Positions 5,286 to 64,000 of a DNA stretch of 64,000 nucleotides are shown here, piece by piece (the stretch's first letter is position 1; every line of letters starts with the position of its first letter). The position numbers and the translations under genes are program-made. The stretch is from Nonlabens agnitus (lineage in GTDB: Bacteria; Bacteroidota; Bacteroidia; Flavobacteriales; Flavobacteriaceae). The notes under the pieces were generated by a model that was not told the DNA's origin, ran no database searches, and worked only from the letters and a program-made list of their open reading frames with translations. The stretch lies in NCBI RefSeq assembly GCF_002994045.1, contig NZ_MQUC01000003.1:2270501-2334500 (forward strand), read 5' to 3'.

Positions 5286-6107
5286 TTAGTTCTTCTTCTG
5301 GTTAGTCGTAAAAACGCTCAGGCGAGCGCGGCTGTAAAGATAGAGTTTTCCGTTCTTTAGGTAAAGTGATTTTGGCGGCTCTTGTGGTTCAATGTTCAGG
5401 TCGTTTTCCATAGGAGTGAACTTATAATCTGCGGTGAATTTAAAAATCTTGAAGGCATCGTCTTGTTGCACCACCAGCTGTTCAAAATCATAATCGGCAA
5501 GATGGATGTTGTCAAGTTTCAGTTCGCTGGTCTTGCTCGCATAATTGTTATAGCTGGCGACTCCTTTATCGCTTACTAGATGACAGTAGTTATAATCGGT
5601 CAACATTTGCGTGACCTGGTTTTGTATAACTGGCGAACTCACCACTAGTTTGTCATTGATATAGTCGTACAATTCCAATCGCTGCTGATCCAGGTTGTAA
5701 AGCCACAAACGACGCTCACCAGCGAGACCGGCAAAATCAAAATACCGATAAGGTTGCAATTGATTGAGTTCCACACGCTGGGTTTCATTGAGCCGATTAT
5801 CCAGCAATACGATGGTTTGTGTGTCCTTATAAAATAGTAAAATCTTAAGCGGATTGATCAAATCCACACTGGTCAGGTCGCCCAACTGCACATCATAAAA
5901 CTGTTGTTTTGGGACACTGGCACGGCCATCGATGGGTGATTTATAGAACACGTTGTCTTTGCCGTAGTACAGGTTTTCAAAATCATCGACACCATAGAAC
6001 GCATCTGCCTGCAGGGAATATGCTGTAGTACTGGTAGATGGTATGGATTGCGCTTTCGCGAAAGCGAAAAAAAATAAACTTCCCAACAATGTGAAAACCA
6101 ACTTCAT
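5286..6107 (-). CDS. Exported protein of unknown function
   Basis: About 273 residues from the ATG at 6107. A further upstream in-frame start at 6161 is possible but would put 18 polar residues before the signal peptide. The chosen start gives a clean signal peptide whose end is AFAKAQ, with an expected signal peptidase I cut after AKA. That segment is encoded by a copy of the dispersed palindrome (6051-6066). The mature part has alternating strand patterns with repeated LYDY/LYLY motifs and could be a beta-propeller-like periplasmic or outer-membrane protein. It is located directly before the deoxynucleoside kinase gene. Function not recognised. Confidence 0.75.
   Translation of the reverse strand: MKLVFTLLGSLFFFAFAKAQSIPSTSTTAYSLQADAFYGVDDFENLYYGKDNVFYKSPIDGRASVPKQQFYDVQLGDLTSVDLINPLKILLFYKDTQTIVLLDNRLNETQRVELNQLQPYRYFDFAGLAGERRLWLYNLDQQRLELYDYINDKLVVSSPVIQNQVTQMLTDYNYCHLVSDKGVASYNNYASKTSELKLDNIHLADYDFEQLVVQQDDAFKIFKFTADYKFTPMENDLNIEPQEPPKSLYLKNGKLYLYSRARLSVFTTNQKKN
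6051..6066. repeat. Dispersed palindrome, copy 1 (inside signal peptide)
   Basis: The core CGCTTTCGCGAAAGCG is perfect. It lies in the frame of the exported protein at 5286-6107 and encodes the AFAKA end of the signal peptide. Confidence 0.95.
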
Positions 6108-6217
6108 ATAATAGGTATCTTTGCCGCCGGTAAAGCGATGCCTTAAAAATACGACTTCCAAAAGTCGCGAGAGTCACAGTGCCTGTAAATAAGTTGTGTA
6201 AAATTATTTGCTAGGGC

Positions 6218-6247
6218 TTGTCAATCAAATTTTTAATAGTACATTTG
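6218..6247 (+). promoter_or_regulatory. Bacteroidota-type promoter for rplM-rpsI
   Basis: TTG at 6218-6220 and TACATTTG at 6240-6247 are separated by 19 nt and match the -33/-7 consensus (TTTG and TAnnTTTG) known for Bacteroidota. The predicted transcript would start about 45 nt before the rplM GTG. Confidence 0.7.
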
Positions 6248-6298
6248 CGGCCCGATTTTAGTTAGTAAAATCGCCTAAGAAATTAAAACTATTTCACA

Positions 6299-6754
6299 GT
6301 GAATACTTTAAGTTACAAAACCGTATCAGCTAACAGCGCTACCGTAAACAAGGAATGGGTACTGATAGATGCTGCTGATCAACCATTGGGACGCATGGCT
6401 TCCATCGCCGCAAAGTTCTTGAGAGGTAAATATAAGACCAATTATACACCGCACGTTGACTGTGGTGATAACGTGATCATTATAAATGCTGCTGGAGTAC
6501 AATTAAGCGGTAACAAATGGAACGATAAGAGTTACATACGCCACACGGGTTACCCAGGTGGACAGCGTAGCCTTACCGCAAAGGAGCTTTATGATAAGGA
6601 TCCCGCAAGAGTAGTAGAAAATGCCGTAAAAGGTATGTTGCCTAAAAACAAGTTAGGAGCTGCTATCTATCGCAACCTTAAAGTATATGCTGGTGCCGAG
6701 CATGAGCAAGGTGCACAACAACCTAGAACAATCAATCTTAACGAGGTAAAGTAA
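6299..6754 (+). CDS. rplM: Large ribosomal subunit protein uL13
   Basis: 151 residues, normal length. It is an early-assembling 50S subunit protein. The segment KEWVLIDAADQPLGRMAS, the HVDCGDNVIIINA strand and the RHTGYPGG motif are diagnostic. The start is a GTG at 6299, chosen because the following residues (NTLSYKTVSAN) match the N-terminus usual in Flavobacteriaceae and no ATG lies upstream. rpsI follows after 4 bases, the common L13-S9 operon. Transcription probably starts from the promoter at 6218-6247 and ends at the hairpin at 7161. Confidence 0.97.
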   Translation: MNTLSYKTVSANSATVNKEWVLIDAADQPLGRMASIAAKFLRGKYKTNYTPHVDCGDNVIIINAAGVQLSGNKWNDKSYIRHTGYPGGQRSLTAKELYDKDPARVVENAVKGMLPKNKLGAAIYRNLKVYAGAEHEQGAQQPRTINLNEVK

Positions 6755-6758
6755 ACCT

Positions 6759-7145: not shown

Positions 7146-7160
7146 TACAACACAATCTTT

Positions 7161-10156: not shown

Positions 10157-10176
10157 TTCGCTTTCGCGAAAGCGAA
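10157..10176. repeat. Dispersed palindrome, copy 2 (intergenic)
   Basis: A full 20-bp TTCGCTTTCGCGAAAGCGAA begins 6 bases after the stop of paralogue A and lies 24 bases before paralogue B. Confidence 0.97.
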
Positions 10177-12659: not shown

Positions 12660-14849
12660 ATGAAGTTCTGTTTTTTGTTTTTCAGTCTACTGGTGAGCTG
12701 TTTTTGTATGGGTCAACAAGATCTCGCTTCAAGTTCTGAAATTGGGTTTATCAACGACATCATTAAGGCAAAGGCGAGAAACAATCCACAGTTACGCTTT
12801 TCTGAGTTTCAATATGAGAGCTATGAGAATCTAAAGATCACTGGTGACCCAGAGGCCATCACTGGTCCAGGATACAAGAAAACCGAACTGCGCAAAACCA
12901 TCAAGCAGACTAAGGTTTTCTATGCAGAAAAGACATCCAGCTACATCTACTCTCAAAAATACGGCCTTAAAGAACAGATCACCGCTGCAGATATGCCCGG
13001 TTTTGCAGAGCCTGTCTACCCTATTTACAACATCAACTTTCAATCGTCCAGTGCTTACCAGTCACCATATATCATCTTTGACAACAAGTACATCAACCCT
13101 ATAAGTGCAAAAGGCCTAAATAATTATCTATATGCCATAGGCAACGATTCCACCATCCACAATCGCCCAGTGATAAAACTTAGTTTTATTCCAGCAAACG
13201 AGCGTAACAAAACAACACTGGAAGGCCATCTTTACATTGATAAAGAAACTCTTGCAATTGCAAAAGCGGTTTACAGTATTTCCAACGATCTTAACGTACA
13301 GGCCATTCACAATTTTGAATATCAGGAAGATCTGGACTTGTGGTTCAATACAGAGCGTTTTCTATCAATCAAGAAGGAAAAGGATAAAAAGGAACTGGAA
13401 TTATTCGGTGCGAGACTAGAAGTTGGGATAGAAAAAACCGACAAGGCCAAAGCGAAAAATGAAGACCTCTATGTATTCATCAAAGCCATCAATTACAACT
13501 TCACCAACCAATTGAACCAAGATTACGGTCGCCGAGGTCTTACCAAAGAAGTACTCGATGAAGCTATCGATAAGTCACCAGAATATTGGGAACCCTACAG
13601 AGATAGAGCCAATAATACAGATGACGAGTTTGCCTCTTACAAAAACATCGATAGCGTCGTGGTGGCGACAAACATTACCAAAAAACTGGAAACCCTAGAT
13701 AAGTTCAAAATAGGCTACTATCCCGTTGGATTCTTTGACATTGATCTCAAATACCTCATTAAGTACAACAATTACGAGGCCTTTAGATTAGGAATAGGTG
13801 GAACGACTAACGAAAAGTTATCAGAGCATTACCGCCTAGGTGGCTATGTTGCCTATGGTACAAAGGATCAGACGTTCAAGTACAATCTCAACGCCGGTTA
13901 TAGAATCAATAAGGAAAAAAATACCTGGCTTAACGTTTATCGCACAGATGACATTACAGAGTTTGCTGCAGAATCCTTCCTGACAGATGCTAGAGTTTAT
14001 TCGCTCTTTGAACCGCGATTGGTCAACATACCTACTTTTTACTTGTATCGCGAGTATGGTTTATCCCTACAGCAACGATTGTTACCATCAGTGATTAGTG
14101 AAGTTTCGCTTTCGCGAAAGCGAATAGATCAAACCACAGCCTACATTTTTCAGCCTGATGATGTACCCTTTGATCGCTATGCATTAACAGAGCTGAAAGT
14201 TGGGGCGCGATGGAGTCCGTACAGTGAATTCATGCGAACACCCAATGGCTATGAAGAAAGCGTCAAAGGTTTCCCGGTATTAAGTGCACAACTCACTAAA
14301 GGATTTAAGGACGTGCTGGAATCTGATTTTAATTATGTAAAGGTGTCAGCAAAAGCTTCTTACACTAGGCTGCATTCCAACAATTCCAGTACAGAATTTT
14401 CAGTGGAAGGTCACTATGCCAGTGGCGAGGCTCCTTTAACGCATTTATTTCACGCCTATCCTAACGCACCTAATAAAGATGCTCTTTTCCAGCGATTTTC
14501 AGTAGCGGGTCGCCGCAGTTTTGAGACCATGTATTTCAATGAGTTTTTCTCTGATAAAATCGCGATAGGACAAGTCAAGCATGAGTTTGCGGCGTTTAAG
14601 ATCGCTCCTTACCTACAGCCAGAACTGGTGTTGATTACCAGATATGCCATAGGCCAATTAAATGATCAACAACAACATCTCAATATTGAGTTCGACACTT
14701 TGGAGAAAGGTTATCTGGAAAGTGGATTTGAACTTAACAAGCTCTTATTTGGTTTTGGTCTAAGTGCCGCCTACAGGTATGGCGCCTATCACCTACCAGA
14801 ATTTGAAGATAATCTTTCCATCAAATTCACCTTTTACCTAGAGCTCTAA
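12660..14849 (+). CDS. DUF5686-family outer membrane protein
   Basis: About 729 residues from the ATG at 12660, chosen because it puts a signal peptide (KFCFLFFSLLVS, ending FCMGQ) first; an ATG at 12636 is in frame. The N-terminal half carries the FSEFQYESYENLKI and KTSSYIYSQKYGLKE segments typical of DUF5686 proteins. The C-terminal half is rich in alternating aromatic strands and ends in FTFYLEL, as expected for an outer-membrane beta-barrel. Unlike many relatives it has no carboxypeptidase-regulatory domain at the N-terminus. A copy of the palindrome (14105-14124) encodes SLSRKR in the barrel part. Function of the family is not established. Confidence 0.8.
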   Translation: MKFCFLFFSLLVSCFCMGQQDLASSSEIGFINDIIKAKARNNPQLRFSEFQYESYENLKITGDPEAITGPGYKKTELRKTIKQTKVFYAEKTSSYIYSQKYGLKEQITAADMPGFAEPVYPIYNINFQSSSAYQSPYIIFDNKYINPISAKGLNNYLYAIGNDSTIHNRPVIKLSFIPANERNKTTLEGHLYIDKETLAIAKAVYSISNDLNVQAIHNFEYQEDLDLWFNTERFLSIKKEKDKKELELFGARLEVGIEKTDKAKAKNEDLYVFIKAINYNFTNQLNQDYGRRGLTKEVLDEAIDKSPEYWEPYRDRANNTDDEFASYKNIDSVVVATNITKKLETLDKFKIGYYPVGFFDIDLKYLIKYNNYEAFRLGIGGTTNEKLSEHYRLGGYVAYGTKDQTFKYNLNAGYRINKEKNTWLNVYRTDDITEFAAESFLTDARVYSLFEPRLVNIPTFYLYREYGLSLQQRLLPSVISEVSLSRKRIDQTTAYIFQPDDVPFDRYALTELKVGARWSPYSEFMRTPNGYEESVKGFPVLSAQLTKGFKDVLESDFNYVKVSAKASYTRLHSNNSSTEFSVEGHYASGEAPLTHLFHAYPNAPNKDALFQRFSVAGRRSFETMYFNEFFSDKIAIGQVKHEFAAFKIAPYLQPELVLITRYAIGQLNDQQQHLNIEFDTLEKGYLESGFELNKLLFGFGLSAAYRYGAYHLPEFEDNLSIKFTFYLEL
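14105..14124. repeat. Dispersed palindrome, copy 3 (in DUF5686 gene)
   Basis: A perfect 20-bp copy in frame SLSRKR, followed by IDQTT in the protein. Confidence 0.97.
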
Positions 14850-17323: not shown

Positions 17324-17364
17324 TTCGCTTTCCTGCCTGACCGGCAGGCAGGCGCGAAAGCGAA
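17324..17364. repeat. Composite palindrome, copy 4 (nested GC-rich palindrome)
   Basis: TTCGCTTTC (17324-17332) and CGCGAAAGCGAA (17353-17364) are the two parts of the dispersed palindrome, separated by CTGCCTGACCGGCAGGCAGG, itself nearly palindromic. On the minus strand the split is TTCGCTTTCGCG / AAAGCGAA, identical to the element at 55566-55605. It starts 13 bases after the transporter stop codon. Confidence 0.92.
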
Positions 17365-19066: not shown

Positions 19067-20515
19067 ATGCTTAAACAGTCCTTAAATTTTAAGCTTTCGC
19101 AAAAGCTATCGCCGCAGCAGATCCAACTCATGAAGTTGATCCAGCTGCCCACGCAGGCTTTTGAACAACGTGTCAAATCAGAGCTGGAAGAGAATCCTGC
19201 GTTAGATAATGGCAAGGAAAAAAGCGAAGATGAGTATGATGAATTTTCCAACGAGAATGAATACGATGATGCTCCAGAGCCAGACATCAATGTGGATGAT
19301 TATTTGAGTGACGATGAGATTCCAGAATACCGCACGAGAGCTAACAACTACAGCTCTGATGATGAGGAGACCAGCATACCTTACGCTTCAGGAAAGTCCT
19401 TTACACAGTCTTTAAAAGATCAGCTCAATACAAGAAGATTGAGTGAAGAAGATCAAGGCATTGCAGAGTTTCTCGTGGGAAGCATTGACAATAGCGGATA
19501 TATAAGACGCAGCCTCGAGGATATTACAGATGATCTTGCCTTTACCATGAATATTTATACTACGGTAGAAAAGGTGGAGAAAGTGCTCAAGATTGTTCAC
19601 CAGTTAGATCCTGCCGGTGTTGGTGCTAGAGATTTACAAGAATGTCTGGTGATTCAGCTTTCGCGAAAGCGTAACAACCCAGCTACCGAACTTGCTCTTA
19701 AAATCGTTAAAGATTCCTTTGATGCTTTTAGCAAGAAACACTACAAAAAACTGATCGCGAAATATCATATCACAGAAGATGATCTGCGCGACGTGATTGA
19801 AGAAATAAGTCATTTGAACCCTAAGCCTGGTAGTTCCTACGCTGGTGGTTCCACTCGTATTGTAGAACAAGTCGTACCAGATTTTACCATAAGAATTAAA
19901 GATGGTGAGCTGGAACTGACCCTTAATGGTCGCAACACTCCAGAATTGCATGTGAGCCGCGATTATTCCAATATGTTGAAAGGTTATAAAGAAGCAAAGG
20001 AAAAGACCAAGTCGCAAAAAGATGCGGTCATGTTTATCAAGCAGAAACTTGATGGCGCAAAATGGTTTATAGAGGCTATTAAGCAACGTCAAGAAACCTT
20101 GTTTATGACCATGTCCTCCATCATGAATTATCAAAAGGAGTATTTCATGACCGGTGATGAGCGTAATTTGCGACCCATGATTCTCAAGGATATTGCAGAC
20201 GAGATTCAAATGGACGTTTCTACCGTTTCTAGGGTTGCAAACAGCAAATATGTGGACACACCTTACGGAACAAAATTGATTAAGGAATTCTTCTCCGAGT
20301 CCATGACTAACACAGATGGAGAAGAAGTCTCCACTCGTGAGATCAAGAAAATACTGGAAACGGTCATTGGTGATGAGAGTAAAAGAAAACCTCTAACCGA
20401 TCAACGTCTCGCCGAAATACTCAAGGAAAAGGGATATCCCATTGCCCGTAGGACCGTTGCCAAGTATCGAGAGCAGCTCGATATTCCCGTAGCGCGTTTA
20501 CGCAAAGAAATTTAA
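19067..20515 (+). CDS. rpoN: RNA polymerase sigma-54 factor
   Basis: 482 residues. It directs RNA polymerase to -24/-12 promoters that need an AAA+ activator. Region I is the Gln/Leu-rich N-terminus (LKQSLNFKLSQKLSPQQIQLMKLIQLP), region II is acidic (residues ~45-90), and the C-terminus contains the helix-turn-helix and the RpoN box ARRTVAKYRE. A palindrome copy (19657-19670) encodes LSRKR in the core-binding region. No sigma-54 activator is visible in the window. The next gene begins 6 bases after the stop. Confidence 0.97.
   Translation: MLKQSLNFKLSQKLSPQQIQLMKLIQLPTQAFEQRVKSELEENPALDNGKEKSEDEYDEFSNENEYDDAPEPDINVDDYLSDDEIPEYRTRANNYSSDDEETSIPYASGKSFTQSLKDQLNTRRLSEEDQGIAEFLVGSIDNSGYIRRSLEDITDDLAFTMNIYTTVEKVEKVLKIVHQLDPAGVGARDLQECLVIQLSRKRNNPATELALKIVKDSFDAFSKKHYKKLIAKYHITEDDLRDVIEEISHLNPKPGSSYAGGSTRIVEQVVPDFTIRIKDGELELTLNGRNTPELHVSRDYSNMLKGYKEAKEKTKSQKDAVMFIKQKLDGAKWFIEAIKQRQETLFMTMSSIMNYQKEYFMTGDERNLRPMILKDIADEIQMDVSTVSRVANSKYVDTPYGTKLIKEFFSESMTNTDGEEVSTREIKKILETVIGDESKRKPLTDQRLAEILKEKGYPIARRTVAKYREQLDIPVARLRKEI
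19657..19670. repeat. Dispersed palindrome, copy 5 (in rpoN, reduced)
   Basis: A 14-bp core GCTTTCGCGAAAGC, flanked by CA on the left and GT on the right, so the outer bases of the full element are lost or were never acquired. Encodes LSRKR. Confidence 0.85.
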
Positions 20516-24327: not shown

Positions 24328-24900
24328 TTGAAGATTTATTGATTATATGATTTTTCTAATAAAGGGCTAAATATATAATTTATTGTGGTAAAACCGAACC
24401 GCAAACCTATTTCTATAAGATTTTAACCAATATTTTTTTGAGGTCAGATCTACTAGGACAATCCTTAATAATTGCTTACGAGGGTTAAGAAATCGGCACT
24501 TTCACTGGCCTTGCTGTTCTAGTTTGCTACATATCAATTAGAAAGAACAATTTGTGATTATTAGCGACTTTGATTTTGAGGTATTCGCTTTCGCGAAAGC
24601 GAACTAGACACCAACATATTTCTGCAAAAAACTTGGGACTGTTTAGTACAACGTCATTAGTTGCCTTCTAGTGTTCGCCTAAACTTTATGAATCATACTA
24701 TTTAAGTCTTTTGAATCAAGTCTAACTTCTCAAGCCAACAGCTACTTAAGATCGATGTCGTATCCACCATTGTTATCCTACTAATTTCTGGCTGCGCGTT
24801 TTACAACTTTGGCTATAAAAAATGAGCGCAGGATTCAAGCCATCGTAAGTGTCTGGGCAGCTTCATGGAAACTGAAATGGGCAAAAAGCCTAGGTCATTT
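24328..24900. other. 573-base gap between exbB and the App1-like gene
   Basis: No gene is supported. It contains the palindrome copy at 24584-24603 and presumably the exbB promoter at the left end. An open stretch of about 36 codons at 24714-24825 reads ILLISGCAFYNFGYKK, which looks like a lipoprotein signal, but it has no start codon and may be a remnant. Confidence 0.6.
24584..24603. repeat. Dispersed palindrome, copy 6 (intergenic)
   Basis: A full 20-bp copy in the large gap between exbB and the App1-like gene, about 260 bases from the nearer gene. Confidence 0.97.
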
Positions 24901-30078: not shown

Positions 30079-30098
30079 TTCGCTTTCGCGAAAGCGAA
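30079..30098. repeat. Dispersed palindrome, copy 8 (5' of aspartic protease)
   Basis: A perfect 20-bp copy. If translation starts at 30057 it encodes FRFRESE near the N-terminus; if it starts at 30126, as preferred here, the copy lies 27 bases upstream of the gene. Confidence 0.95.
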
Positions 30099-31461: not shown

Positions 31462-31508
31462 CAACCTCAAATTAATAACCAGGGTCGAGAACCCATAAAA
31501 TTAATGTT

Positions 31509-37730: not shown

Positions 37731-37750
37731 TTCGCTTTCGCGAAAGCGAA
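37731..37750. repeat. Dispersed palindrome, copy 11 (intergenic)
   Basis: A full 20-bp copy in the divergent region between mrp and the CBS-domain gene. Confidence 0.97.
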
Positions 37751-43685: not shown

Positions 43686-43705
43686 TTCGCTTTCGCGAAA
43701 GCGAA
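43686..43705. repeat. Dispersed palindrome, copy 13 (intergenic)
   Basis: A full 20-bp copy starting 13 bases after the stop of the patatin gene, and about 105 bases before hmgA. Confidence 0.97.
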
Positions 43706-47730: not shown

Positions 47731-48708
47731 ATGCCGGACAAGATCTCTCCAGAAATTGCAGAACGCATCCAACTGCTAGAAAAGAAGTTCAAAAACTCTG
47801 GGCAGGACATGCTTTCCTACCTTGACGGCCTTCTTTACGATCAATACATTACCTACTGGGATTACATAAGACTGGACACTTTGCTTAGTTTACAAGTGCC
47901 GTCCACGCCATTTCCAGATGAGATGATTTTCATAGGATATCATCAAATCACAGAACTGTACTTTAAACTCGTAATCCACGAGCAGCTTCAGGTAATCGAG
48001 CAGGAACAGCTTACGGGCACTTATTTTTTGGAAAAAATCAAGCGCATCAATCGGTACTTTAATGTGATGATCAACAGTTTTGAGGTCATGATCAAAGGTA
48101 TGGAGCGCGAGCAGTTTCTTAAATTCAGGATGTCGTTGTTGCCAGCGAGTGGTTTCCAGAGCGCACAGTTCCGTATGATAGAGCTGTATGCAACAAATGT
48201 GGATCATCTGGTGCATTATGATGATAGAGTTCGCTTTCGCGAAAGCGAAACAACCACAAGCATTCCAGAATTATTCCAACATATTTACTGGAAAAAAGGC
48301 GGCATTGACAAAACCACCGGCGAAAAGACACTTACACTAAAACAGTTTGAGAAACGTTACACACCTAGGTTCCTTAGAATTGCAGAGCAGGTCAAACACA
48401 GCAATATCTACCAGCGATACCTACAACTTCCTGAATCTGAGAAATTACCAGAACTAAAGGAAGAATTACGTAAAATGGATCAAAACGTCAATATTAACTG
48501 GTTACTCATGCACATGGGAGCAGCCCACCGCTATCTGCGTAAGGAAAGCGGTACGGTTCAAGCTACAGGTGGCACCAACTGGAAGGAATTTCTACCGCCC
48601 AGTTTCCAGCGCATCTCATTTTTCCCTTCATTATGGTCTGATCAAGAGCATGCAGAATGGGGAAAACAATGGGTTGACCACACTTTTAATACCTCTACCA
48701 TAGAATGA
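47731..48708 (+). CDS. kynA: Tryptophan 2,3-dioxygenase
   Basis: 325 residues, longer than bacterial TDOs of about 280. It opens the indole ring of tryptophan to N-formylkynurenine using heme. Visible are YHQITELYFKLVIHEQLQVIEQEQL with the heme and substrate-side residues, FLKFRMSLLPASGFQSAQFRMIE and the C-terminal MHMGAAHRYLRKESGTVQATGGTNW. A palindrome copy (48230-48249) encodes RFRESE after RVRF in a loop. Its stop overlaps the start of the M23 peptidase gene (4 bases). A possible -7 element TACATTTG lies at 47703-47710. Confidence 0.94.
   Translation: MPDKISPEIAERIQLLEKKFKNSGQDMLSYLDGLLYDQYITYWDYIRLDTLLSLQVPSTPFPDEMIFIGYHQITELYFKLVIHEQLQVIEQEQLTGTYFLEKIKRINRYFNVMINSFEVMIKGMEREQFLKFRMSLLPASGFQSAQFRMIELYATNVDHLVHYDDRVRFRESETTTSIPELFQHIYWKKGGIDKTTGEKTLTLKQFEKRYTPRFLRIAEQVKHSNIYQRYLQLPESEKLPELKEELRKMDQNVNINWLLMHMGAAHRYLRKESGTVQATGGTNWKEFLPPSFQRISFFPSLWSDQEHAEWGKQWVDHTFNTSTIE
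48230..48249. repeat. Dispersed palindrome, copy 14 (in kynA)
   Basis: A perfect 20-bp copy in frame RFRESE. Confidence 0.97.
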
Positions 48709-49946: not shown

Positions 49947-51580
49947 AAAATATCAACCCAACCACTACTACTTCTTGGGAAACCCTGAAAGAACACTATA
50001 AAAACCTCAAGGATTTTGACCTTAAGCAATCCTTTGTAAAAAACCCTAATCGGGTCGATAATTTCACGATCATCAACGATGATTTTTATGTAGACATGTC
50101 AAAAAACCTTTTGACCACCTCTACAAAAGATGTATTGACCCAACTGGCTAGGGAATGTGATCTGGAGAAAGCCATTGAGTCCTATTACAGCGATCAACCT
50201 ATTAACGTTACAGAGTATCGTGAGGTTCTTCATACAGCTCTTAGAACGCCTCTAGACAAAGCAAATGATAAAATCAAAAGCTATGTAAAAGATGCGCTGG
50301 CCAGTAAGGAGAAAATGTTTGCGTATGTCAATGAGATCTTAGATGGCTCTCGTACCACCCATGATGGTCAACCATTTGACACAGTCGTTAATATAGGCAT
50401 AGGTGGTAGCGACTTGGGGCCTATGATGGTTTATACCGCTTTAGAAGCCTACCACAATCAGGTAAAAGTCCATTTTGTCTCCAATGTGGACGGTGATCAC
50501 GTAGAGGAAACGCTCAAAAAGATCAACCCTGAAACCACGTTGTTTATCATCGTATCTAAATCATTTACCACTCAAGAAACCTTGACCAATGCTACGACCC
50601 TGCGGGACTGGTTTTCAAAAGAGGTATCCACAGATGCTGTAGGCAAACATTTCATTGCAGTGAGCAGTAATGTAGAGCGCGCGATAGAATTTGGTGTGGA
50701 GAAAGAAAACATCTTCCCTATGTTTGACTGGGTAGGTGGTCGTTTTTCTTTATGGAGCACCGTTGGGATGTCCATCGCATTGGGAATAGGTACGGCCAAC
50801 TTTCAGGCGCTATTAGACGGCGCTCACGAAATGGATGTTCACTTTAGAGATGCTAAGCTGGACGACAACATCCCAGTACAGTTAGCGCTGCTTACCATAT
50901 GGTACAACAACTTTTTCAAGGCAGAAAGTGAGGTCATCATTCCTTACACACAGTATCTGCAACAACTGCCTGCCTATTTGCAACAAGCGATCATGGAAAG
51001 TAATGGGAAGAGCATCGATAGAGATGGAAAACCCATTGATTACCAAACAGGAAATCTTATTTGGGGAGCACCTGGAACCAATTCCCAACATGCTTTTTTT
51101 CAATTGATTCACCAGGGAACTAAACTTATTCCAGCTCATTTTATCGCTTTCGCGAAAGCGAAATACAATCATCCTGATCACCATCAAAAACTCATGGCAA
51201 ATTTCTTTGCACAGACCGAGGCGCTTATGAACGGCATGTCCATGGATCAAGTGAAAGAAGATTTAGAGAAAAGTAAATTGACTGAAAAAGAGCAGAAGTT
51301 ACTGGCTCCTTTTAAAGTTTTTGAAGGTAATAAGCCTACCACCACTATTTTAATCGATGAACTGACTCCAAAAAGTCTAGGCAAGCTCATCGCGATGTAC
51401 GAACACAAAATTTTCACGGAAGGTGTGATCTGGAACATCTACAGTTACGATCAATGGGGTGTCCAACTAGGTAAAGTTCTTGCAGATAGGATAAACGACG
51501 ACCTAAAGTCCAAAAAGTTTAATGGACATGACGCCTCAACCACTGCGCTTCTTAAGCGCTTTGACTCTAAATTAGGGTAA
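49943..51580 (+). CDS. pgi: Glucose-6-phosphate isomerase
   Basis: 545 residues, typical. It interconverts glucose-6-phosphate and fructose-6-phosphate in the cytoplasm. Diagnostic: NIGIGGSDLGPMMVYTAL, VSKSFTTQETLTNA, the FDWVGGRFSLWSTVG region and SYDQWGVQLGKVLA. A palindrome copy (51144-51161) encodes FAKA between FIA and NHPDHHQK; the spacing in that stretch equals that of E. coli Pgi from memory (nine residues), so the copy did not lengthen the protein. Start overlaps the M23 gene stop by 4 bases (ATGA). Confidence 0.97.
   Translation: MKNINPTTTTSWETLKEHYKNLKDFDLKQSFVKNPNRVDNFTIINDDFYVDMSKNLLTTSTKDVLTQLARECDLEKAIESYYSDQPINVTEYREVLHTALRTPLDKANDKIKSYVKDALASKEKMFAYVNEILDGSRTTHDGQPFDTVVNIGIGGSDLGPMMVYTALEAYHNQVKVHFVSNVDGDHVEETLKKINPETTLFIIVSKSFTTQETLTNATTLRDWFSKEVSTDAVGKHFIAVSSNVERAIEFGVEKENIFPMFDWVGGRFSLWSTVGMSIALGIGTANFQALLDGAHEMDVHFRDAKLDDNIPVQLALLTIWYNNFFKAESEVIIPYTQYLQQLPAYLQQAIMESNGKSIDRDGKPIDYQTGNLIWGAPGTNSQHAFFQLIHQGTKLIPAHFIAFAKAKYNHPDHHQKLMANFFAQTEALMNGMSMDQVKEDLEKSKLTEKEQKLLAPFKVFEGNKPTTTILIDELTPKSLGKLIAMYEHKIFTEGVIWNIYSYDQWGVQLGKVLADRINDDLKSKKFNGHDASTTALLKRFDSKLG
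51144..51161. repeat. Dispersed palindrome, copy 15 (in pgi)
   Basis: TCGCTTTCGCGAAAGCGA in frame AFAKA within pgi; length-neutral relative to E. coli Pgi. Confidence 0.96.
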
Positions 51581-55565: not shown

Positions 55566-55605
55566 TTCGCTTTCGCGCCTGCCTGTCGGCAGACAGGAAA
55601 GCGAA
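55566..55605. repeat. Composite palindrome, copy 16 (nested GC-rich palindrome)
   Basis: TTCGCTTTCGCG (55566-55577), then the near-palindrome CCTGCCTGTCGGCAGACAGG (55578-55597), then AAAGCGAA (55598-55605). This is the same arrangement, in opposite orientation, as at 17324-17364. It ends 12 bases before the mfd stop codon. Confidence 0.93.
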
Positions 55606-55617: not shown

Positions 55618-58600
55618 CTATTCCTGCTCCACCGTTGCAGTTTCTAACGGCAGCACGTCGTTCATGATCTTAAACGCCTTATCGACACTTGTGATGTGAT
55701 CCATTTTTAGCAACAGTCTCAAACCAGACCTAGTTTGTTTTTCTTTCATGTGCATCTTACTGCCACGTTGGCTCATGGACTTTATCAAGAAATTGAAGGT
55801 CTCACTTTGATAAAACTTGCTGGTTTGATCTGCGATAAAATATCCTACAAACTTGCCTTGCTTCATGACGATTTTCTCAAGTCCCATACGACTCGCAATC
55901 CATTTGAGTTTAATGCTGGTGAGCAAATCTTCTGCTGGATCAGGCAACTCGCCAAAACGGTCTACCAACTCCTTTCTGAACGTATCAAGCCCAGCCTGAT
56001 CCTCTATATCATTAAGCTTAGAATATAGTGCCAGTCGCTCTGTCACACTGTTGATGTAATCATCTGGGAACAAGAGTTCAAAATCAGTATCGATGGTAAC
56101 ATCACCAACGTGTTTCTTTTTAGTCGCATCAGTAGGGTACAAATCAGCAAACTCATTTTCCTTGAGTTCTTCTATGGCTTCACTGAGAATTTTTTGATAG
56201 GTATCAAATCCTATTTCATTGATAAAACCACTTTGCTCACCTCCTAAAATATCACCTGCACCGCGTATTTCAAGATCCTTCATCGCGATATTAAAACCAC
56301 TACCCAGTTCTGAGAAACTCTCAATGGCTTGCATGCGCTTCCTGGCATCGTCTGTCATCATATCGTAAGGTGGAGTTATGAAGTAGCAAAATGCTTTCTT
56401 ATTGCTACGACCTACTCTACCACGCATCTGGTGCAAGTCAGATAGTCCAAAATTATTGGCATTATTGATGAAAATGGTATTGGCATTAGGTACATCAAGT
56501 CCGCTTTCAATAATGGTGGTACTCACAAGTACATCAAACTCGCCATTCATAAATGCGAGCATCAATTCTTCCAACTTTTTACCATCCATTTGTCCATGAC
56601 CTATGCCTACTCTTGCATCGGGTACTGATCGCTGGATCATTCCAGCAACTTCCTTAATATTTTCGATACGGTTGTGAACAAAAAACACCTGGCCGCCACG
56701 AGAAATCTCATAGCTAATCGCATCCCTAATGGTCGCTTCAGAAAAACGAACAATTTGCGTTTCTATGGGATGCCTGTTAGGTGGTGCGGTTTTGATCACA
56801 CTCAAGTCACGAGCTGCCATTAGAGAGAACTGCAGGGTTCTAGGAATGGGCGTTGCCGTTAAGGTTAACGTATCTATGTTCTCTTTGAGTGTCTTGAGCT
56901 TGTCCTTTACGGCAACCCCAAATTTTTGTTCCTCATCAATAATCAACAATCCAATATCCTTGAATTTGACCGAGTTATTGACCAATTGGTGCGTACCTAT
57001 AACAATGTCAATAGAGCCATCTGCAAGCCCATCCAGAACGGCGCGTCTTTCCTTTGCCGTACGGAATCGGTTTAGATAATCCACCTTCACAGGCATGTCT
57101 GCCAGACGTTCCTTAAAAGTCTTGGCATGTTGAAAGGCTAGAACCGTAGTAGGAACTAAAACAGCTACTTGCTTGCCATTAACAGCGGCTTTAAAAGCGG
57201 CACGTATGGCTACCTCAGTCTTGCCAAAGCCTACGTCACCACAAACAAGACGATCCATAGGGCGCTCACTTTCCATGTCATTTTTGACATCTTGCGTGGC
57301 CGTGCTTTGGTCTGGCGTGTCCTCATAGATAAAGCTGGCCTCAAGTTCATTTTGTAAGTAACCGTCAGGCGCATATTGAAAGCCTTTGTTGGCACGACGC
57401 TTAGCATATAGTTTAATCAAGTCAAACGCAATTTGCTTGACTCGTGTTTTTGTTTTGGCCTTGAGCTTTTTCCAGGCCGGACTTCCCAGTTTATAGATCT
57501 TAGGAGTTTTACCGTCCTTAGCGGAATAGCGCGTGATCTTATGCAGTGAATGGATGGAAACATACAAGATGTCTCGCTCGCCGTAAAACAGCTTGATTGC
57601 CTCTTGCATCTTACCGTTAACATCGATTTTTTGAAGCCCGCCAAATCTTCCTATTCCATGATCAATATGGGTCACATAATCACCTTTCTCGAGCGTGTTG
57701 AGCTCCTTGAGCGTGATGGCCTGCTTTTTAGCATAACCATTCTTCAACTGGAACTTGTGGTAGCGATCAAAAATCTCGTGGTCTGTGTAACACGCGATGC
57801 GCAAATCGTGATCCATAAAACCACGATACAGTGTCATGATAACCGTTTCATAGGCGACATTAGCGCCCATGTCGTCAAAAATATCCTTGAATCTTTTGGC
57901 CTGCTGTGCCGTGCTGCAAAACAGGTAGGTTTTATAACCGTCAGCTTCATTTTGCTTCAGGTTATCGATAAGCAACTCAAACTGTTTATTAAAGGATGGC
58001 TGCGGTACGGTTTTAAAAGTAATGTCTGGCTGATTTCCAGATAATTCCACTAGGTTGAATTCCGCGAGTTGCTCTTTTAGCAGTGCCGATTTGCTAAAAA
58101 TATCTTCTGGTTCCAGCTGCTTAATTTCTCCTTGCAACTCGCTGTATGCTTGTTCCGCTTTCGCGAAAAGCGAATCTATCCTACCATACATCATCTCGAC
58201 ATTCCTCGCGATCACGACTGTCTTGGATGGAAGATATTTTAGAAAACTCTCTCTTTTTTCTGAGGACTGTTTGTTCTCGACATTAGGTATAATGGACAGC
58301 TTCTTAATTTGATCCTTGGACAATTGTGTCTCCACGTCAAAAATGCGGATGGAGTCGATCTCGTTTCCAAAGAACTCGATACGATAAGGCTCATCATTTG
58401 AAAATGAAAACACATCCAAAATACCACCACGCACCGAAAACTCTCCAGGTTCTGTCACAAAATCAACGCGCTTAAAGGCATATTCAAAAAGCACTTCATT
58501 AGCAAAATCGATGGAGATCTGGTCACCTACGCTTATTTTGAGCGTGTTGCGATCCAGCTCTTTTTTAGTCACCACCTTTTCAAAAAGAGCATCTGGATAG

Positions 58601-60408: not shown

Positions 60409-61229
60409 GCTTTACTGGCACGCCACTGCTGGAATTTTAGCATTGGATTGGTAGCTCTATTTTGATACCCATGAATCATGCAATTGATCGCTATCAATAT
60501 AGCTGCGCCTAACGCTAGATAGGCAATATCATCCATGGTTCCCGTGTGTCTCACATAAATCGCCACCAGTGCCCAGACGGTAACTCCTGCAAATTCACGC
60601 ATGTTTCGATACCAAACCATCAGTAAATTGATAATCGTTGCAACCACAATAATTCCTATCGTGGCAAGTACCTGTTGATTTTCTGGTATATCAAACATAC
60701 CATTCAAATAACTCGCGACATTTGCAATAATTGCGACACTTATCCATCCAGAGTACAAGCATAAAGGCCACCATACAAAGGCGATAATTGGAAATGGCGC
60801 ATCCCATAATTCCATGTCCAGCTGCTTGACGCAAAGCAGTAAACAAACCAGTATTCCTATCATACAAAGCACAGATGCTCCGATCATTTCTTCCAGCCAC
60901 AAAGCGACCCAAACAGAACAAAATATATTGGCCGCTAGAAAATAAGGGAAAGTGGTGATCACAAAGTTGGTCCTATAGCTGCGAGGTTGTAGGGATTTCG
61001 CTTTCGCGAAAGCGGAATACACACCATATCCAGCAAACACCAATAGCATTAAGAAAATAAGACCCCAAATCGAAAAGGCATAGCTGGCTGGAGTAAACAG
61101 GTTATTGTACTCTGCACTTAGATCACCTACGGTTCTACCGTTGAAGTTTCCCGTGTTTGCGTAGCCATTCCATGCAATAAGAACGATAACGATGAAAAGG
61201 TTGAGTATGCTGATCAGACGTTTGTACAT
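60405..61229 (-). CDS. TspO/MBR-like (tryptophan-rich) membrane protein
   Basis: 274 residues with about seven hydrophobic helices. NLFTPASYAFSIWGLIFLML is the hallmark N-terminal segment of TspO-like proteins in Bacteroidota, and Trp-rich helices follow (FVWWPLCLYSGWISV). Longer than TspO (about 160), so it is a larger relative whose function is not established; TspO binds porphyrins and sterols in other bacteria. A palindrome copy (60997-61014) encodes AFAKAK in the loop after the second helix. Confidence 0.7.
   Translation of the reverse strand: MYKRLISILNLFIVIVLIAWNGYANTGNFNGRTVGDLSAEYNNLFTPASYAFSIWGLIFLMLLVFAGYGVYSAFAKAKSLQPRSYRTNFVITTFPYFLAANIFCSVWVALWLEEMIGASVLCMIGILVCLLLCVKQLDMELWDAPFPIIAFVWWPLCLYSGWISVAIIANVASYLNGMFDIPENQQVLATIGIIVVATIINLLMVWYRNMREFAGVTVWALVAIYVRHTGTMDDIAYLALGAAILIAINCMIHGYQNRATNPMLKFQQWRASKA
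60997..61014. repeat. Dispersed palindrome, copy 18 (in TspO-like gene)
   Basis: TTCGCTTTCGCGAAAGCG followed by GAA, so one G is inserted relative to the full element on the right. In frame AFAKAK on the minus strand. Confidence 0.9.
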
Positions 61230-61264
61230 GGCTAGGTTTTGTGGGAATAAATATACAGTAGTTT

Positions 61265-61906
61265 TTAGGATAACTCTACCACTTCATTCTCCACACAAAC
61301 GAAAATGCGATTGCCCTTTTGAGGTTTCATGGCATAGGTTCCCGTAAAATCCCCAAAAGCTGGTACTATCATACCATAATCTGTACAGAAAAAACAAGGC
61401 ATTTTTAAACGTTGCCTACCTATTCCGGTCAATTTTACCGCAGGATGTATGTGCCCAGCAATGTTGAAGACGTTTTCCCTTTCTAAGGGATGATGGGTGA
61501 GCAGTACATCGCCCATTTGTAATTGCTGTACCGTTTTTATTCCCAGCATATTGAAATGATCGCTTGATATAAGGTCGTGGTTTCCCATGACCAGCGTGAG
61601 CTCAATACTTTGCATGCGGGACCATTGTTCAAAAAAATGCCACTCTGCATTTTGATAAGAGTGAAATAAGTCTCCTAAGAACCAAAGCCGTGAAGGCTTG
61701 AAATAATCGATCACAGCATTGAGTTTATCATATTCATTGTCATCTGCCTGCGATGGCACGGCCATTCCATGCTTTCTAAAATGGGCGCTTTTACCCAAAT
61801 GAACATCTGCCAATAAAACAACATCCTGTTCCTGCCAGTAGCAGGCACCAGTGCTATGTAAATGAAAGGTCTGATTGTGAAGAGTTACTTGGAGACTATC
61901 ACTCAT
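61265..61906 (-). CDS. pdeM: Ligase-associated metallophosphoesterase
   Basis: 213 residues. The calcineurin-like motifs DVHLGKSAHFRKHG, FLGDLFHSY, VMGNHDLIS and GHIHPAVKL are in order, and the spacing HLGKxAHFRxxG is typical of PdeM, a phosphoesterase found with DNA ligase and an Lhr-like helicase in DNA repair. No ligase or helicase is seen in this window, so it stands apart from its usual partners, as is common in Bacteroidota. It starts 4 bases downstream of the TonB receptor stop (on the minus strand) and is likely co-transcribed. Confidence 0.85.
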   Translation of the reverse strand: MSDSLQVTLHNQTFHLHSTGACYWQEQDVVLLADVHLGKSAHFRKHGMAVPSQADDNEYDKLNAVIDYFKPSRLWFLGDLFHSYQNAEWHFFEQWSRMQSIELTLVMGNHDLISSDHFNMLGIKTVQQLQMGDVLLTHHPLERENVFNIAGHIHPAVKLTGIGRQRLKMPCFFCTDYGMIVPAFGDFTGTYAMKPQKGNRIFVCVENEVVELS

Positions 61907-61910
61907 TGTT

Positions 61911-64000
61911 CTAAAAAGAATAATTAAGAGCGAGAATCAAGTTGCGCCCGGCAGCCGCTATTCCAGAAGAGTACGTTCTATAGCGCTGGTCTGTGATATT
62001 TTCTAATGTCGCAATCGCGCTTAAGCTATCCGTAAACTGATATTGCGATCTTAGGTTGACCGTGTACCATGAAGGAGAAAACGGATTCCCATTCACATCA
62101 CTGGCATATAGATAATCCCTATCCTGTTGGTCTGGTGCCAACTCGTCAAAATCAAACTGACCATTGAAAATAGTAAACGCGTCCAGCTTGAACTTGCCTT
62201 GATCATAAACCACGTGGGCATCACCAAAAGCTGGTGCCACATGTCTAACGGCAACCTCACTGCCATCTTCTTCTTCCTGCTTTCCATCCAGCCAGGTGTA
62301 GTGACCGTACAGCTTAAAATGATCTGATAATTTGTAATCGACACCTAATTCAATTCCGTAAATTTCAGAGCGTTCTGAATTTTGAATGGCTCGCACTTGG
62401 CTTAATTCTCCTTGATAGACAATCATGTCCTCACCATCGAGTGTAAAATCTCTGGGAACCAAAGCATCCTTTAAAATAGTGTAATAGCCAGCTACTTCTA
62501 CCGTCAAATCATTGCCTATGCGTTTCTTGAGACCTAATTCTGCATTATAGGAATATTCAGATTCTAGGTCTGGATTGGGTACGATCACCGTGCCTGGACT
62601 AGGATCAAAAATCTTACCTACATCATCAATATTAGGCGCTCTAAAGGCTGTGCTTAAATTGGCTCGCAGTTCGAGACTAGGATCTGGCAGGTAAGTTGCG
62701 CCTATGCCACCAGTCAATGCACCAGTGTTGACCATGGCATCATCAAATGGGAAATTAAAAAAAGTATTGTCAAAGTCTGCATCTAGCCAGATGTGATTAT
62801 ATCGAGCGCCAGATTGTACGGTGAAATTAGAAGCAACTTTCCATTGATAGCTTACGTAAGCGGCGAGCGATTGCCATGTAGAACCGTCTGGATATCTGGT
62901 GGCTGCATCTGTTCTTTGTCTGGTCTCAATGTCAAAGACACTGCCTGTAGAACCGACTTTGTTATGAACATATTCTGCGCCATAAAACAAGATGTTATCC
63001 TCACGATTACGGCGCTCAAAATCAACAGAAGTGCTCCAGGCGTCGACTTGTTCGTCATTTTCAAAAAGATCAGGCGATTGAAAACTGCGGGCATTGCGAC
63101 TCTCATCAAACCTTTGGAATGCCTGAGTAATGACCATTTTATCATACCAGGTACCACTACCGCGGTGCTGGGCTTTGGCATTGACCATAAACCACTTTTG
63201 AGGTCCATAATACCACTCTGCATTTCTTGGGTTTCCGCTTTCGCGAAAGCGATCTAAAGCATCATAGCGGCTGTAGTCTGACGTTGCTGTATAAATCAAT
63301 CCTAGATCCAGTTTCCAATACAGACTAGGCTTGTAACTGAATTTTTGCAGCAGGTTGATCTGGTCATAACCCGTGGGCACCTGCACCTCAGGATCTTTAT
63401 TTTCTATCACAACATCTTGACCGTTGCGACGTGCGGCATAACGTTCTCGCAAATAGTCATCAGGACCGTTGGACCCCATTTTTAAATCATCAAAAGAATT
63501 GATGCTAATGCTGGTGGCACTTGCAAAATTTGAAGTGCCGTAATTAAAATCTACGTGACCTGTCTTTTCATTGTTTGCGGTTGCAAAGCGTAAAATGCCG
63601 TTTCCTGTAAAGTCAGCAGCAGTTTCAGTATCTGAAAATTGAGGTGACAGCGTGAAGAAATTCATGACGCCACCTATAGCATCGCTACCATAAACAACAC
63701 TGCCTGGCCCTAGAATCACCTCAGTCCGCTCCACGCTCAATGGATCTATGGAGATGATGTTTTGAAGATTACCGCCGCGAAAAATGGCCGTATTCATACG
63801 CACACCGTCAACCGTGAGTAGCAATCTGTTGGTAGAGAAGCCTCTTATCAATGGGCTGCCGCCACCTTGCTGGCTTTTTTGAACATACACTTGACCGGTT
63901 TGCTGTAACAAATCTGCACTGGTTTGTGGGTTTTGGAAGACGATCTCTTCCTTGCTAGCACTCACGACCGATTGTGGTATATCCTGTTGTCGTTGTTGGA
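61911..64000 (-). CDS. TonB-dependent receptor, N-terminus beyond window edge
   Basis: The frame is open to the window edge. A GTG at 63965 is an internal Val codon and not a start, since QQRQQDIPQSVV continues upstream in frame. The plug domain begins near the edge (LLQQTGQVYVQKSQQGGGSPLIRG, RLLLTVDGVRMN), followed by LGPGSVVYGSDAIGGVMNFF and a barrel ending in NLILALNYSF. The QGGGSPLIRG form is common in heme/vitamin/siderophore-type receptors; substrate unknown. A palindrome copy (63236-63251) encodes DRFRES. Co-directional with pdeM 4 bases downstream. Confidence 0.88.
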   Translation of the reverse strand, partial: QQRQQDIPQSVVSASKEEIVFQNPQTSADLLQQTGQVYVQKSQQGGGSPLIRGFSTNRLLLTVDGVRMNTAIFRGGNLQNIISIDPLSVERTEVILGPGSVVYGSDAIGGVMNFFTLSPQFSDTETAADFTGNGILRFATANNEKTGHVDFNYGTSNFASATSISINSFDDLKMGSNGPDDYLRERYAARRNGQDVVIENKDPEVQVPTGYDQINLLQKFSYKPSLYWKLDLGLIYTATSDYSRYDALDRFRESGNPRNAEWYYGPQKWFMVNAKAQHRGSGTWYDKMVITQAFQRFDESRNARSFQSPDLFENDEQVDAWSTSVDFERRNREDNILFYGAEYVHNKVGSTGSVFDIETRQRTDAATRYPDGSTWQSLAAYVSYQWKVASNFTVQSGARYNHIWLDADFDNTFFNFPFDDAMVNTGALTGGIGATYLPDPSLELRANLSTAFRAPNIDDVGKIFDPSPGTVIVPNPDLESEYSYNAELGLKKRIGNDLTVEVAGYYTILKDALVPRDFTLDGEDMIVYQGELSQVRAIQNSERSEIYGIELGVDYKLSDHFKLYGHYTWLDGKQEEEDGSEVAVRHVAPAFGDAHVVYDQGKFKLDAFTIFNGQFDFDELAPDQQDRDYLYASDVNGNPFSPSWYTVNLRSQYQFTDSLSAIATLENITDQRYRTYSSGIAAAGRNLILALNYSF
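63236..63251. repeat. Dispersed palindrome, copy 19 (in TonB receptor gene)
   Basis: The core CGCTTTCGCGAAAGCG is perfect, with differing outer bases. In frame DRFRESG on the minus strand. Confidence 0.93.

What the first reader, a model, noticed from the sequence alone, without database searches (positions are those of the whole stretch)
6051..63251. Family of a 20-bp dispersed palindrome, 19 copies in 64 kb
TTCGCTTTCGCGAAAGCGAA or its 14-18 bp core recurs at 6051, 10157, 14105, 17324 (split), 19657, 24584, 27426, 30079, 33265, 35459, 37731, 41473, 43686, 48230, 51144, 55566 (split), 58154 (degenerate), 60997 and 63236. A specific 16-bp palindrome is not expected even once by chance in this length. 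Known analogies are Rickettsia palindromic elements, which insert into genes, and the cyanobacterial HIP1 octamer, which is spread over coding and non-coding DNA. I cannot say whether this family has been described. Possible roles are a binding site for a nucleoid, replication or segregation protein, a methylation or uptake target, or a small mobile repeat.
Basis: partly seen in the sequence, partly recalled or inferred. Interest (0 to 1): 0.85.

Follow-up and report, generated by a model that had tools for sequence, protein, structure and literature searches.

The report
Evenly spaced genome-wide 20-bp palindrome
Two genera of flavobacteria carry the same 20-letter mirror-image DNA word hundreds of times, set down about every three to four thousand letters through genes and gaps alike; it behaves like a tag that something must recognise, most likely during uptake of kindred DNA, but the protein that reads it is unknown.

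Summary
All 19 listed copies exist, two of them split and one with an extra base. The window is Nonlabens-like. Its 3.2-Mb genome holds 762 copies of the core GCTTTCGCGAAAGC. All 23 genomes of the genus and four Dokdonia genomes carry 180 or more; no other genus among 395 genomes of the order exceeds 12. In 804 kb sampled, 191 exact cores stand against 13 with one mismatch and an order-5 Markov expectation of 0.5. Gaps peak at 2-3 kb. Copies sit in all reading frames, stay at the same places between Nonlabens species while flanks diverge by 20-30%, and arise by substitution, not insertion. They are missing from a ribosomal-protein operon, mobile islands and two lytic phages, but present in some prophage-type phages. 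Each flank is C-poor and G/T-rich with a 3-nt period, on the strand running into the palindrome. Mobile-repeat and ParB-paralogue readings are disfavoured. The best fit is a DNA-uptake signature of a type-IV-pilus-free competence system (0.45). A Chi-like repair site or a chromosome-architecture site remains open. Ten full-text searches found no prior description. The reader protein is unidentified.

The parts
6049..6068 (.). copy 1 of the palindrome (1 mismatch), inside an ORF (FAFAKA frame)
   Evidence: same core in G007 and G020
10157..10176 (.). copy 2, exact, between ORFs ending 10150 and starting 10201
14105..14124 (.). copy 3, exact, inside 737-aa ORF (LSRKR frame)
   Evidence: core kept in 5 relatives, down to 69% identity of the aligned stretch
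17324..17364 (.). copy 4, split by a nested 21-bp GC-rich palindrome, between ORFs ending 17311 and starting 17454
   Evidence: unsplit in G007, G020 and G019
17332..17352 (.). nested stem CCTGCCTGACCGGCAGGCAGG
19654..19673 (.). copy 5 (3 mismatches outside the core), inside a sigma-54 (rpoN) gene
   Evidence: core kept in 5 relatives
24584..24603 (.). copy 6, exact, intergenic
27426..27445 (.). copy 7, exact, inside a type I asparaginase gene
   Evidence: absent in G016
30079..30098 (.). copy 8, exact, inside 169-aa ORF near its start
33265..33284 (.). copy 9, exact, inside 247-aa ORF; the G007 orthologue carries the nested stem
35458..35477 (.). copy 10 (2 mismatches outside the core), inside ORF
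37731..37750 (.). copy 11, exact, intergenic
41472..41491 (.). copy 12 (1 mismatch), near the start of a 745-aa patatin/BamA-like ORF
   Evidence: absent in G019, degenerate in G002
43686..43705 (.). copy 13, exact, intergenic
48230..48249 (.). copy 14, exact, inside a 325-aa ORF like tryptophan 2,3-dioxygenase
51143..51162 (.). copy 15 (1 mismatch), inside a glucose-6-phosphate isomerase gene (FAFAKAK)
   Evidence: aligns to a solved isomerase without insertion
55566..55605 (.). copy 16, split by a nested 20-bp stem, between convergent ORFs
55578..55597 (.). nested stem CCTGCCTGTCGGCAGACAGG
58154..58174 (.). copy 17, degenerate (one extra A in the right arm), inside 1123-aa ORF
   Evidence: same form in G007, G020, G019 and G022
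60997..61016 (.). copy 18 (1 mismatch), inside ORF (FAFAKAK frame)
63234..63253 (.). copy 19 (2 mismatches outside the core), inside 684-aa ORF

Best explanation
The palindrome is most likely a DNA-uptake (self-recognition) signature of Nonlabens and Dokdonia, which works like the uptake sequences of Haemophilus and Neisseria. INFERRED: a surface or periplasmic protein of a type-IV-pilus-free competence system binds the palindrome and its two G/T-rich arms, so DNA fragments bearing it are taken up and recombined into the chromosome preferentially. Biased replacement then builds and maintains copies wherever the sequence can be tolerated, about one per fragment length, which would explain the even spacing. 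SHOWN: the genome-wide enrichment, even spacing, near-invariant core, symmetric flank pattern, conserved positions within Nonlabens, origin by substitution in most comparable copies, absence from a ribosomal-protein operon, from island-like stretches and from two cultivated phages, presence in other phage records, and presence of the DUF5689 family (linked to competence in Riemerella) in 22 of 23 genomes of the genus. NOT SHOWN: that these bacteria are competent, that uptake depends on the motif, or which protein reads it.
For: Density and restriction: 180-737 16-mers in all 23 genomes of the genus, 827-905 14-mers in four Dokdonia genomes, no other genus of 395 order-level genomes above 12 16-mers. 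Even spacing: of 202 gaps pooled over 804 kb, 10 are under 1 kb (46.5 expected) and 61 are 2-3 kb (27.6 expected); CV 0.42 in a 264-kb stretch against 0.705 as the lowest of 2000 random placements. Haemophilus uptake sequences are reported as significantly evenly spaced and 65% inside reading frames (PMC1939737, introduction read). Here 130 sites are coding and 44 non-coding among those classified. A 16-kb gap is an operon that by eye is the S10-spc ribosomal-protein cluster; other gaps look like islands. Copies arise without insertion in isomerase and sigma-54 and in 8 of 9 genes where Dokdonia lacks the site. Nine phage records that I picked because they have the motif hold 2-7 copies each; three of them bear Mu-like or integrase genes. 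As a control, temperate Haemophilus phages HP1 and HP2 carry 17 uptake sequences each. Nonlabens phages P12024S and P12024L (lytic by recall; no integrase annotated) have none. Riemerella competence needs a DUF5689 protein and its outer-membrane neighbour, which resemble no known uptake-machine protein (PMC8459023, passages and section 19), and R. columbina prefers its own DNA (PMC7965970, passages). DUF5689 is in 22 of 23 genomes of the genus, in the window genome beside an ORF that by eye looks like the beta-barrel gene.
Against: Known uptake sequences are not palindromes (PMC1939737). The core is far purer than theirs: 191 exact to 13 single-mismatch here against 1471 to 764 in H. influenzae (PMC1939737). 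A type II/IV secretion ATPase query matched only 3 of 23 genomes of the genus, so the usual pilus route seems absent in most. DUF5689 is also in 12 of 13 same-family genomes of other genera, which lack the motif or nearly so, so it does not explain the specificity. A 3-nt periodic flank is not a feature of uptake sequences that I know of. No paper joining Dokdonia and natural competence was found, and ComEC and DprA were not looked for in these genomes.
Confidence: 0.45

Rival explanations
1. A Chi-like recombination and repair site read inside the cell: a helicase-nuclease or RecA-loading machine stops at the palindrome and leaves a 3' tail whose G/T triplets nucleate a RecA filament. A palindrome would work from either side.
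For: G/T-rich, C-poor arms on the strand running 5' to 3' into the site from both sides, with 3-nt period (permutation p from under 0.0002 to 0.026 in six sets, coding and non-coding). Density of one per 3-5 kb resembles Chi (1008 GCTGGTGG listed for E. coli, PMC1939737). Phages P12024S/L, which lack it, carry their own annotated ssDNA-annealing protein and exonuclease.
Against: Known Chi sites are 5-8 bp and oriented (recalled). Two genera only, although all relatives need break repair. No RecBCD/AddAB search was made. Presence in phages is equally explained by uptake.
Confidence: 0.2
2. A chromosome-architecture or segregation site: a dimeric nucleoid protein binds each copy and divides the chromosome into 3-4-kb units.
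For: Perfect two-fold symmetry, even spacing, positions conserved between species, near-invariant core, copies in phage records.
Against: No genus-wide extra ParB/Noc-type protein: one ParB_N match in 20 of 23 genomes of the genus, as in most other genera. Gaps of up to 30 kb are tolerated. Stretches at 0, 1.2, 1.7 and 2.2-2.45 Mb carry sites at mean gaps of 2.8-4.3 kb, with only the island-rich stretch at 0.24-0.36 Mb sparser (8.4 kb), unlike Noc or matS (recalled). Only 3 of 12 comparable coding sites are shared with Dokdonia.
Confidence: 0.2
3. A methylation-linked highly iterated palindrome like cyanobacterial HIP1, built by biased repair around a methyltransferase site.
For: Palindrome spread over coding and non-coding DNA, clade-restricted. 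PMC4390886 (abstract read) proposes this for HIP1.
Against: 14 near-invariant bases plus 15-bp phased arms are longer than methyltransferase sites that I know of. Even spacing is not a HIP1 property that I know of. No methyltransferase search was made.
Confidence: 0.07
4. A small mobile palindrome (Rickettsia-palindrome or REP-like repeat) that inserts into genes.
For: Hundreds of near-identical copies. A second 20-21-bp palindrome does sit inside some copies and differs between close species. The asparaginase copy lies in a loop expansion.
Against: Motif peptides align without insertion in isomerase, sigma-54 and 8 of 9 genes where Dokdonia lacks the site. Positions are conserved at 69-79% mean flank identity. 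Spacing is too even.
Confidence: 0.04

Closest known systems
Uptake signal sequence of Haemophilus influenzae (AAGTGCGGT) and DNA uptake sequence of Neisseria
   Same: Hundreds to thousands of copies, even spacing, copies in genes and gaps, suggested origin by point mutation (all stated in PMC1939737), many copies in temperate phages HP1 and HP2
   Different: Here a 20-bp palindrome with two phased arms, far fewer single-mismatch forms, two genera of Flavobacteriales, and no secretion-ATPase match in 20 of 23 genomes; uptake bias untested
HIP1 (GCGATCGC) of cyanobacteria
   Same: Clade-restricted highly iterated palindrome in coding and non-coding DNA
   Different: 8 bp and linked to known methyltransferases (PMC4390886 abstract); ours is 14-20 bp with phased flanks and even spacing
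Chi recombination hotspot (GCTGGTGG in E. coli)
   Same: Similar density; G/T-rich strand 5' of the site (the Chi side of this is recalled)
   Different: Short and oriented; ours is long and symmetric, and relatives lack it
Noc-binding sites and parS
   Same: Dimer-type palindromes of similar style (recalled)
   Different: Far fewer and regionally distributed (recalled); no genus-wide ParB paralogue here
Rickettsia palindromic elements / REP sequences
   Same: Dispersed palindromes, some within genes (recalled)
   Different: Those are inserted elements (recalled); these mostly arise in place and stay put

Membership tests
DNA uptake sequence (DUS/USS) | Strong genome-wide over-representation | tested here: met
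   191 against 0.5 expected in 804 kb; 676 16-mers and 762 14-mers genome-wide
DNA uptake sequence (DUS/USS) | Even spacing, copies in coding and non-coding DNA | tested here: met
   stretches B and C are less regular (CV 0.74 and 0.92)
DNA uptake sequence (DUS/USS) | Origin by substitution, not insertion | tested here: met
   8 of 9; one loop expansion in asparaginase is ambiguous
DNA uptake sequence (DUS/USS) | Single-mismatch forms abundant, as in H. influenzae | tested here: not met
   13 single-mismatch to 191 exact; 764 to 1471 in H. influenzae
DNA uptake sequence (DUS/USS) | Type IV pilus machinery with receptor | tested here: not met
   ATPase query matched 3 of 23 genomes of the genus; one query, so a divergent ATPase could be missed
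DNA uptake sequence (DUS/USS) | Preferential uptake of motif-bearing DNA by competent cells | not testable with these tools
   needs an experiment
HIP1-type highly iterated palindrome | Cognate methyltransferase | not tested
   no methyltransferase search or modification data
Rickettsia palindromic element / REP-type mobile repeat | Copies are insertions relative to relatives | tested here: not met
   8 of 9
Chi site | Recognised by the species' RecBCD/AddAB and stimulates recombination | not testable with these tools
   needs biochemistry; gene content not searched
Noc/ParB site | Cognate ParB-family paralogue | tested here: not met
   one ParB_N match in 20 of 23 genomes of the genus; G014 and G019 have two and G018 three

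The most novel reading that the evidence does not exclude
An unrecognised intracellular punctuation system: a symmetric site every 3-4 kb whose palindrome is bound by a dimer while both arms are read in 3-nucleotide steps on the strand entering the site, as by a RecA-like or other triplet-binding filament, so that repair or chromosome folding can start from defined stations on either strand.
Probability: 0.25. Interest if true: 0.95.

Novelty: new variant of a known kind. Interest (0 to 1): 0.82.

Why it matters
If it is an uptake signature, it would be the first I could find for Bacteroidota (the one paper that one search returned lists over-represented short k-mers in Riemerella and leaves their role open) and the first palindromic one that I know of, and it would give a sequence-specific bait for a pilus-free DNA-uptake machine. 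If it is intracellular, an evenly spaced site with a near-invariant 14-bp core and triplet-phased arms would be a new kind of chromosomal landmark. Either way many proteins have been reworded to hold it (peptides such as FAFAKA, LSRKR and RFRESE).

Tried and rejected
Type IV pilus as reader: a cluster at G000 C4:332508-338698 has a secretin, a secretion ATPase and a pilin with a sub-threshold match to the ComP uptake-receptor family (21.6 against a 27.3 cut-off), but the ATPase query matched only 3 of 23 genomes of the genus, all of which carry the motif, so it cannot be the general reader.

Noc/ParB paralogue: rejected. Canonical parS: none with up to 2 mismatches in 804 kb; the sample does not include the parB locus, so this says little.

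Related palindromes in other genera: none stood out in 20-40-kb samples of 11 near genera, while Nonlabens and Dokdonia controls were clear. Small samples could miss a rarer motif.

Phage copies as evidence for an intracellular role: withdrawn after the HP1/HP2 control.

The stable mini-hairpin d(GCGAAAGC), recalled: the 14-mer equals two overlapping copies, but the folding program gives that 8-mer no stability, so I make no use of it. The 20-mer folds as an 8-bp hairpin, -6.6 kcal/mol, z -1.55.

Autoregulation: site pairs closer than 1.25 kb lie mostly in ordinary genes by eye (histidine pathway, enoyl-CoA hydratase and the like) and point to no reader. Small contigs C1 and C3 look chromosomal by eye, not plasmids (C1 and C3 read in part).

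Full report
OBSERVATION. The 20-mer TTCGCTTTCGCGAAAGCGAA occurs 16 times in the window with up to 3 mismatches; shuffles give none. The three remaining listed copies are two that are split by a GC-rich stem and one with an extra A. The window lies at C4:2270501-2334500 of an unnamed 3.2-Mb genome with 676 exact CGCTTTCGCGAAAGCG and 762 exact GCTTTCGCGAAAGC.

WHO HAS IT. All 22 other genomes of the genus hold 180-737 copies of the 16-mer; of 36 genomes outside the genus in that draw one holds 4 and 35 none. The genus is Nonlabens by inference: UvrC of the window is 85-91% identical to three named Nonlabens species and 77% to Flavobacteria bacterium BBFL7, against 71-72% to four Dokdonia genomes and 74% to the nearest other genus sampled. 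Short nucleotide matches are less clear (65-76% and one short 81% match for Nonlabens and BBFL7, 65-70% for Dokdonia). Four Dokdonia genomes hold 827-905 14-mers; three named Nonlabens genomes and BBFL7 hold 551-611. In 395 genomes of the order only the two Nonlabens and one other genome (630 copies) reach hundreds; the next has 12. That genome's first positions equal those of the Dokdonia sinensis record. In a UvrC protein tree Nonlabens and Dokdonia are not sisters: motif-poor G188 groups with Dokdonia (97/92), so at least two gains or losses are needed (one gene only).

SPACING. I took 804 kb (including the window) in five contiguous stretches. A weight matrix plus the split copies gives 207 sites with few intermediate scores. 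Mean gap is 3.6 kb, CV 0.42, in the 264-kb stretch around the window; the lowest CV of 2000 random placements is 0.705. Of 202 pooled gaps 10 are under 1 kb (46.5 expected) and 61 are 2-3 kb (27.6 expected). Regularity varies: CV 0.37 (D) and 0.44 (E), but 0.74 in B, which lies inside the simulated range (lowest 0.63), and 0.92 in the sparse stretch C. Six gaps exceed 8 kb, all in B and C, and I looked at all six. By eye they hold the S10-spc ribosomal-protein operon, an integrase/relaxase-type island, a Wadjet island with giant ORFs (JetD and an SMC-like protein confirmed), the pilus-like cluster with giant ORFs, and two stretches of ordinary genes. A Dokdonia sample of 400 kb is also short of close pairs (1 and 4 gaps under 1 kb, 8.5 and 11.6 expected), but its CVs of 0.73 and 0.64 lie within the simulated range (lowest 0.65 and 0.63).

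CORE AND FLANKS. In 804 kb there are 191 exact 14-mers, 13 with one mismatch and 13 with two; shuffled cores give 0, 0.05 and 1.6. Outside the 14-mer the preferred bases are softer and differ: T at -9 in the window genome, A in Dokdonia. From -11 to about -26 the strand that runs into the palindrome is C-poor and G/T-rich, from both sides. G+T peaks at -11, -14, -17, -20 and -23 in the pooled set. The 3-nt component passes a column-permutation test in all six sets (coding and non-coding copies of the window genome, other Nonlabens and Dokdonia; p from below 0.0002 to 0.026). It is weakest in non-coding Dokdonia copies, where periods of 3.5 and 4 are nearly as strong. Sites in ORFs of 90-149 aa were left out of that split, and the sets are related species, so these are not six independent tests. 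Non-coding copies show it, so codon structure alone does not explain it.

EVOLUTION. At alignable window sites the window's 14 core letters are all kept in 16 of 17 (G007, 96% flank identity), 11 of 13 (G020), 9 of 12 (G019), 9 of 10 (G022), 2 of 3 (G016), 4 of 5 (G002) and 3 of 6 (G004), the last six at 69-79% mean flank identity; random 14-mers nearby are kept in 20 of 34, 3 of 29, 1 of 28, 0 of 27, 0 of 12, 0 of 12 and 0 of 15. Counted instead as a motif with at least 13 of 14 letters within 40 bp: 14 of 17, 12 of 13, 9 of 12, 8 of 10, 2 of 3, 4 of 5 and 4 of 6. Among other Nonlabens-type loci 8 of 12 mappable sites coincide with the window genome (random positions 3.4% within 60 bp). Against Dokdonia, 3 of 12 coding sites coincide (0.45 expected at random inside the same genes); of the 9 where Dokdonia lacks the site 8 show no insertion in the window genome and one has a 5-residue gap beside the motif. 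A nucleotide mapping of Dokdonia loci gave only 3 usable sites, 1 coinciding. Sites are therefore old within Nonlabens and largely separate in Dokdonia, although core and flank grammar are shared. In glucose-6-phosphate isomerase and sigma-54 the motif peptide replaces a variable stretch with no insertion; in asparaginase it lies in a loop expansion; the fourth protein tried did not align over the motif.

MOBILE DNA. A scan of viral contigs gave 41 stretches with the 16-mer; some are high-GC single hits that look like chance. Nine records that I chose from these carry 2-7 14-mers each, so the density is that of motif-bearing records, not of phages in general. Three of the nine have Mu-like or integrase genes, and in one record a copy lies inside a terminase gene and another inside a portal gene. 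Two cultivated phages of Nonlabens have none, the best match being 3 mismatches in 14; I call them lytic from recall. As a yardstick, temperate Haemophilus phages HP1 and HP2 carry 17 host uptake sequences each against 0.14 and 0.13 for shuffled words. In 29 of 147 other genera 1-17 14-mers occur; those I opened in G131, G122 and G033 lie in or beside heavy-metal efflux genes, which reads as DNA passed on from a motif-bearing genus.

NESTED PALINDROME. A 20-21-bp stem of the type CCTGCCTGCCGGCAGGCAGG sits in the centre of nine copies in 804 kb. Of 27 CCTGCCTG/CAGGCAGG words 19 are in motif context; the other 8 lack the full stem. Close species differ in which sites carry it (17324 in G000 but not G007; 33265 in G007 but not G000). 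None was seen in 36 Dokdonia and 31 other Nonlabens-type loci.

WHAT READS IT. Not a genus-wide ParB paralogue and not the pilus-like cluster. Riemerella, which its authors place in the Flavobacteriaceae, is naturally competent. Its genes include ComEC, DprA, ComF, an HhH protein, a DUF5689 surface protein and a neighbouring outer-membrane protein, the last three unlike known uptake machinery (PMC8459023, passages and section 19). R. columbina prefers its own DNA, although over-represented short k-mers listed there were left untested as uptake sequences (PMC7965970, passages). DUF5689 is in 22 of 23 genomes of the genus; the one without it is 77% complete. In the window genome it lies between a beta-barrel-like ORF (by eye) and an endonuclease/exonuclease/phosphatase-family gene. 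Because DUF5689 is also in 12 of 13 same-family genomes of other genera in that draw, it is a candidate machine, not a demonstrated reader.

JUDGEMENT. The pattern matches an uptake signature in seven respects (density, spacing, tolerance-limited placement, origin by substitution, phage copies, absence from island-like stretches, clade restriction) and departs from known ones in four (palindrome, purity of the core, phased arms, missing pilus). I therefore say it works like an uptake sequence (0.45) and do not file it as a member of the Neisseria or Haemophilus families. Chi-like (0.2) and architectural (0.2) readings stay open. Ten full-text searches, including the exact 20-mer and 16-mer strings, returned no listing that describes this palindrome; most subscription papers are not in that library.

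Noticed in passing
window 17332-17352 and 55578-55597; also G000 C4:20498, 263417, 1284397, 1756243, 2215066, 2351009, 2447456: A second 20-21-bp GC-rich palindrome (CCTGCCTGCCGGCAGGCAGG type) is found as a full stem only inside the centre of the first one, and closely related species differ in which sites carry it: a palindrome that seems to target a palindrome.
   Followed up: partly
L088-L091 (G131, G122, G033) and places in 29 other genera: Copies in several other genera cluster at repeated distances (933 bp, about 2446 bp); those opened lie in or beside heavy-metal efflux genes (CusA/CzcA, TolC-like, P-type ATPases), so the motif works as a tracer of DNA passed out of a motif-bearing genus.
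   Followed up: partly
L232 (G000 C4:301247-307296): A Wadjet-type defence cluster (JetD and an SbcC/SMC-like protein matched in Pfam; JetA and JetB by eye) lies in a 30-kb motif-free stretch.
   Followed up: no
G000 C4:316681-326874 and 340083-350156: A pair of giant ORFs (about 1800 and 1550 aa) is present twice with the same opening residues; Pfam has no match for the one tested, and one pair adjoins the pilus-like cluster.
   Followed up: no
L233 (G000 C4:332508-338698): A pilus/type II-like cluster whose pilin weakly matches the ComP uptake-receptor family; its ATPase matches in 3 of 23 genomes of the genus and in 30 of 147 genomes of other genera.
   Followed up: yes
window 31471-31505: Rfam S16-Flavobacteria ribosomal protein leader, just upstream of the ORF at 31509.
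   Followed up: no
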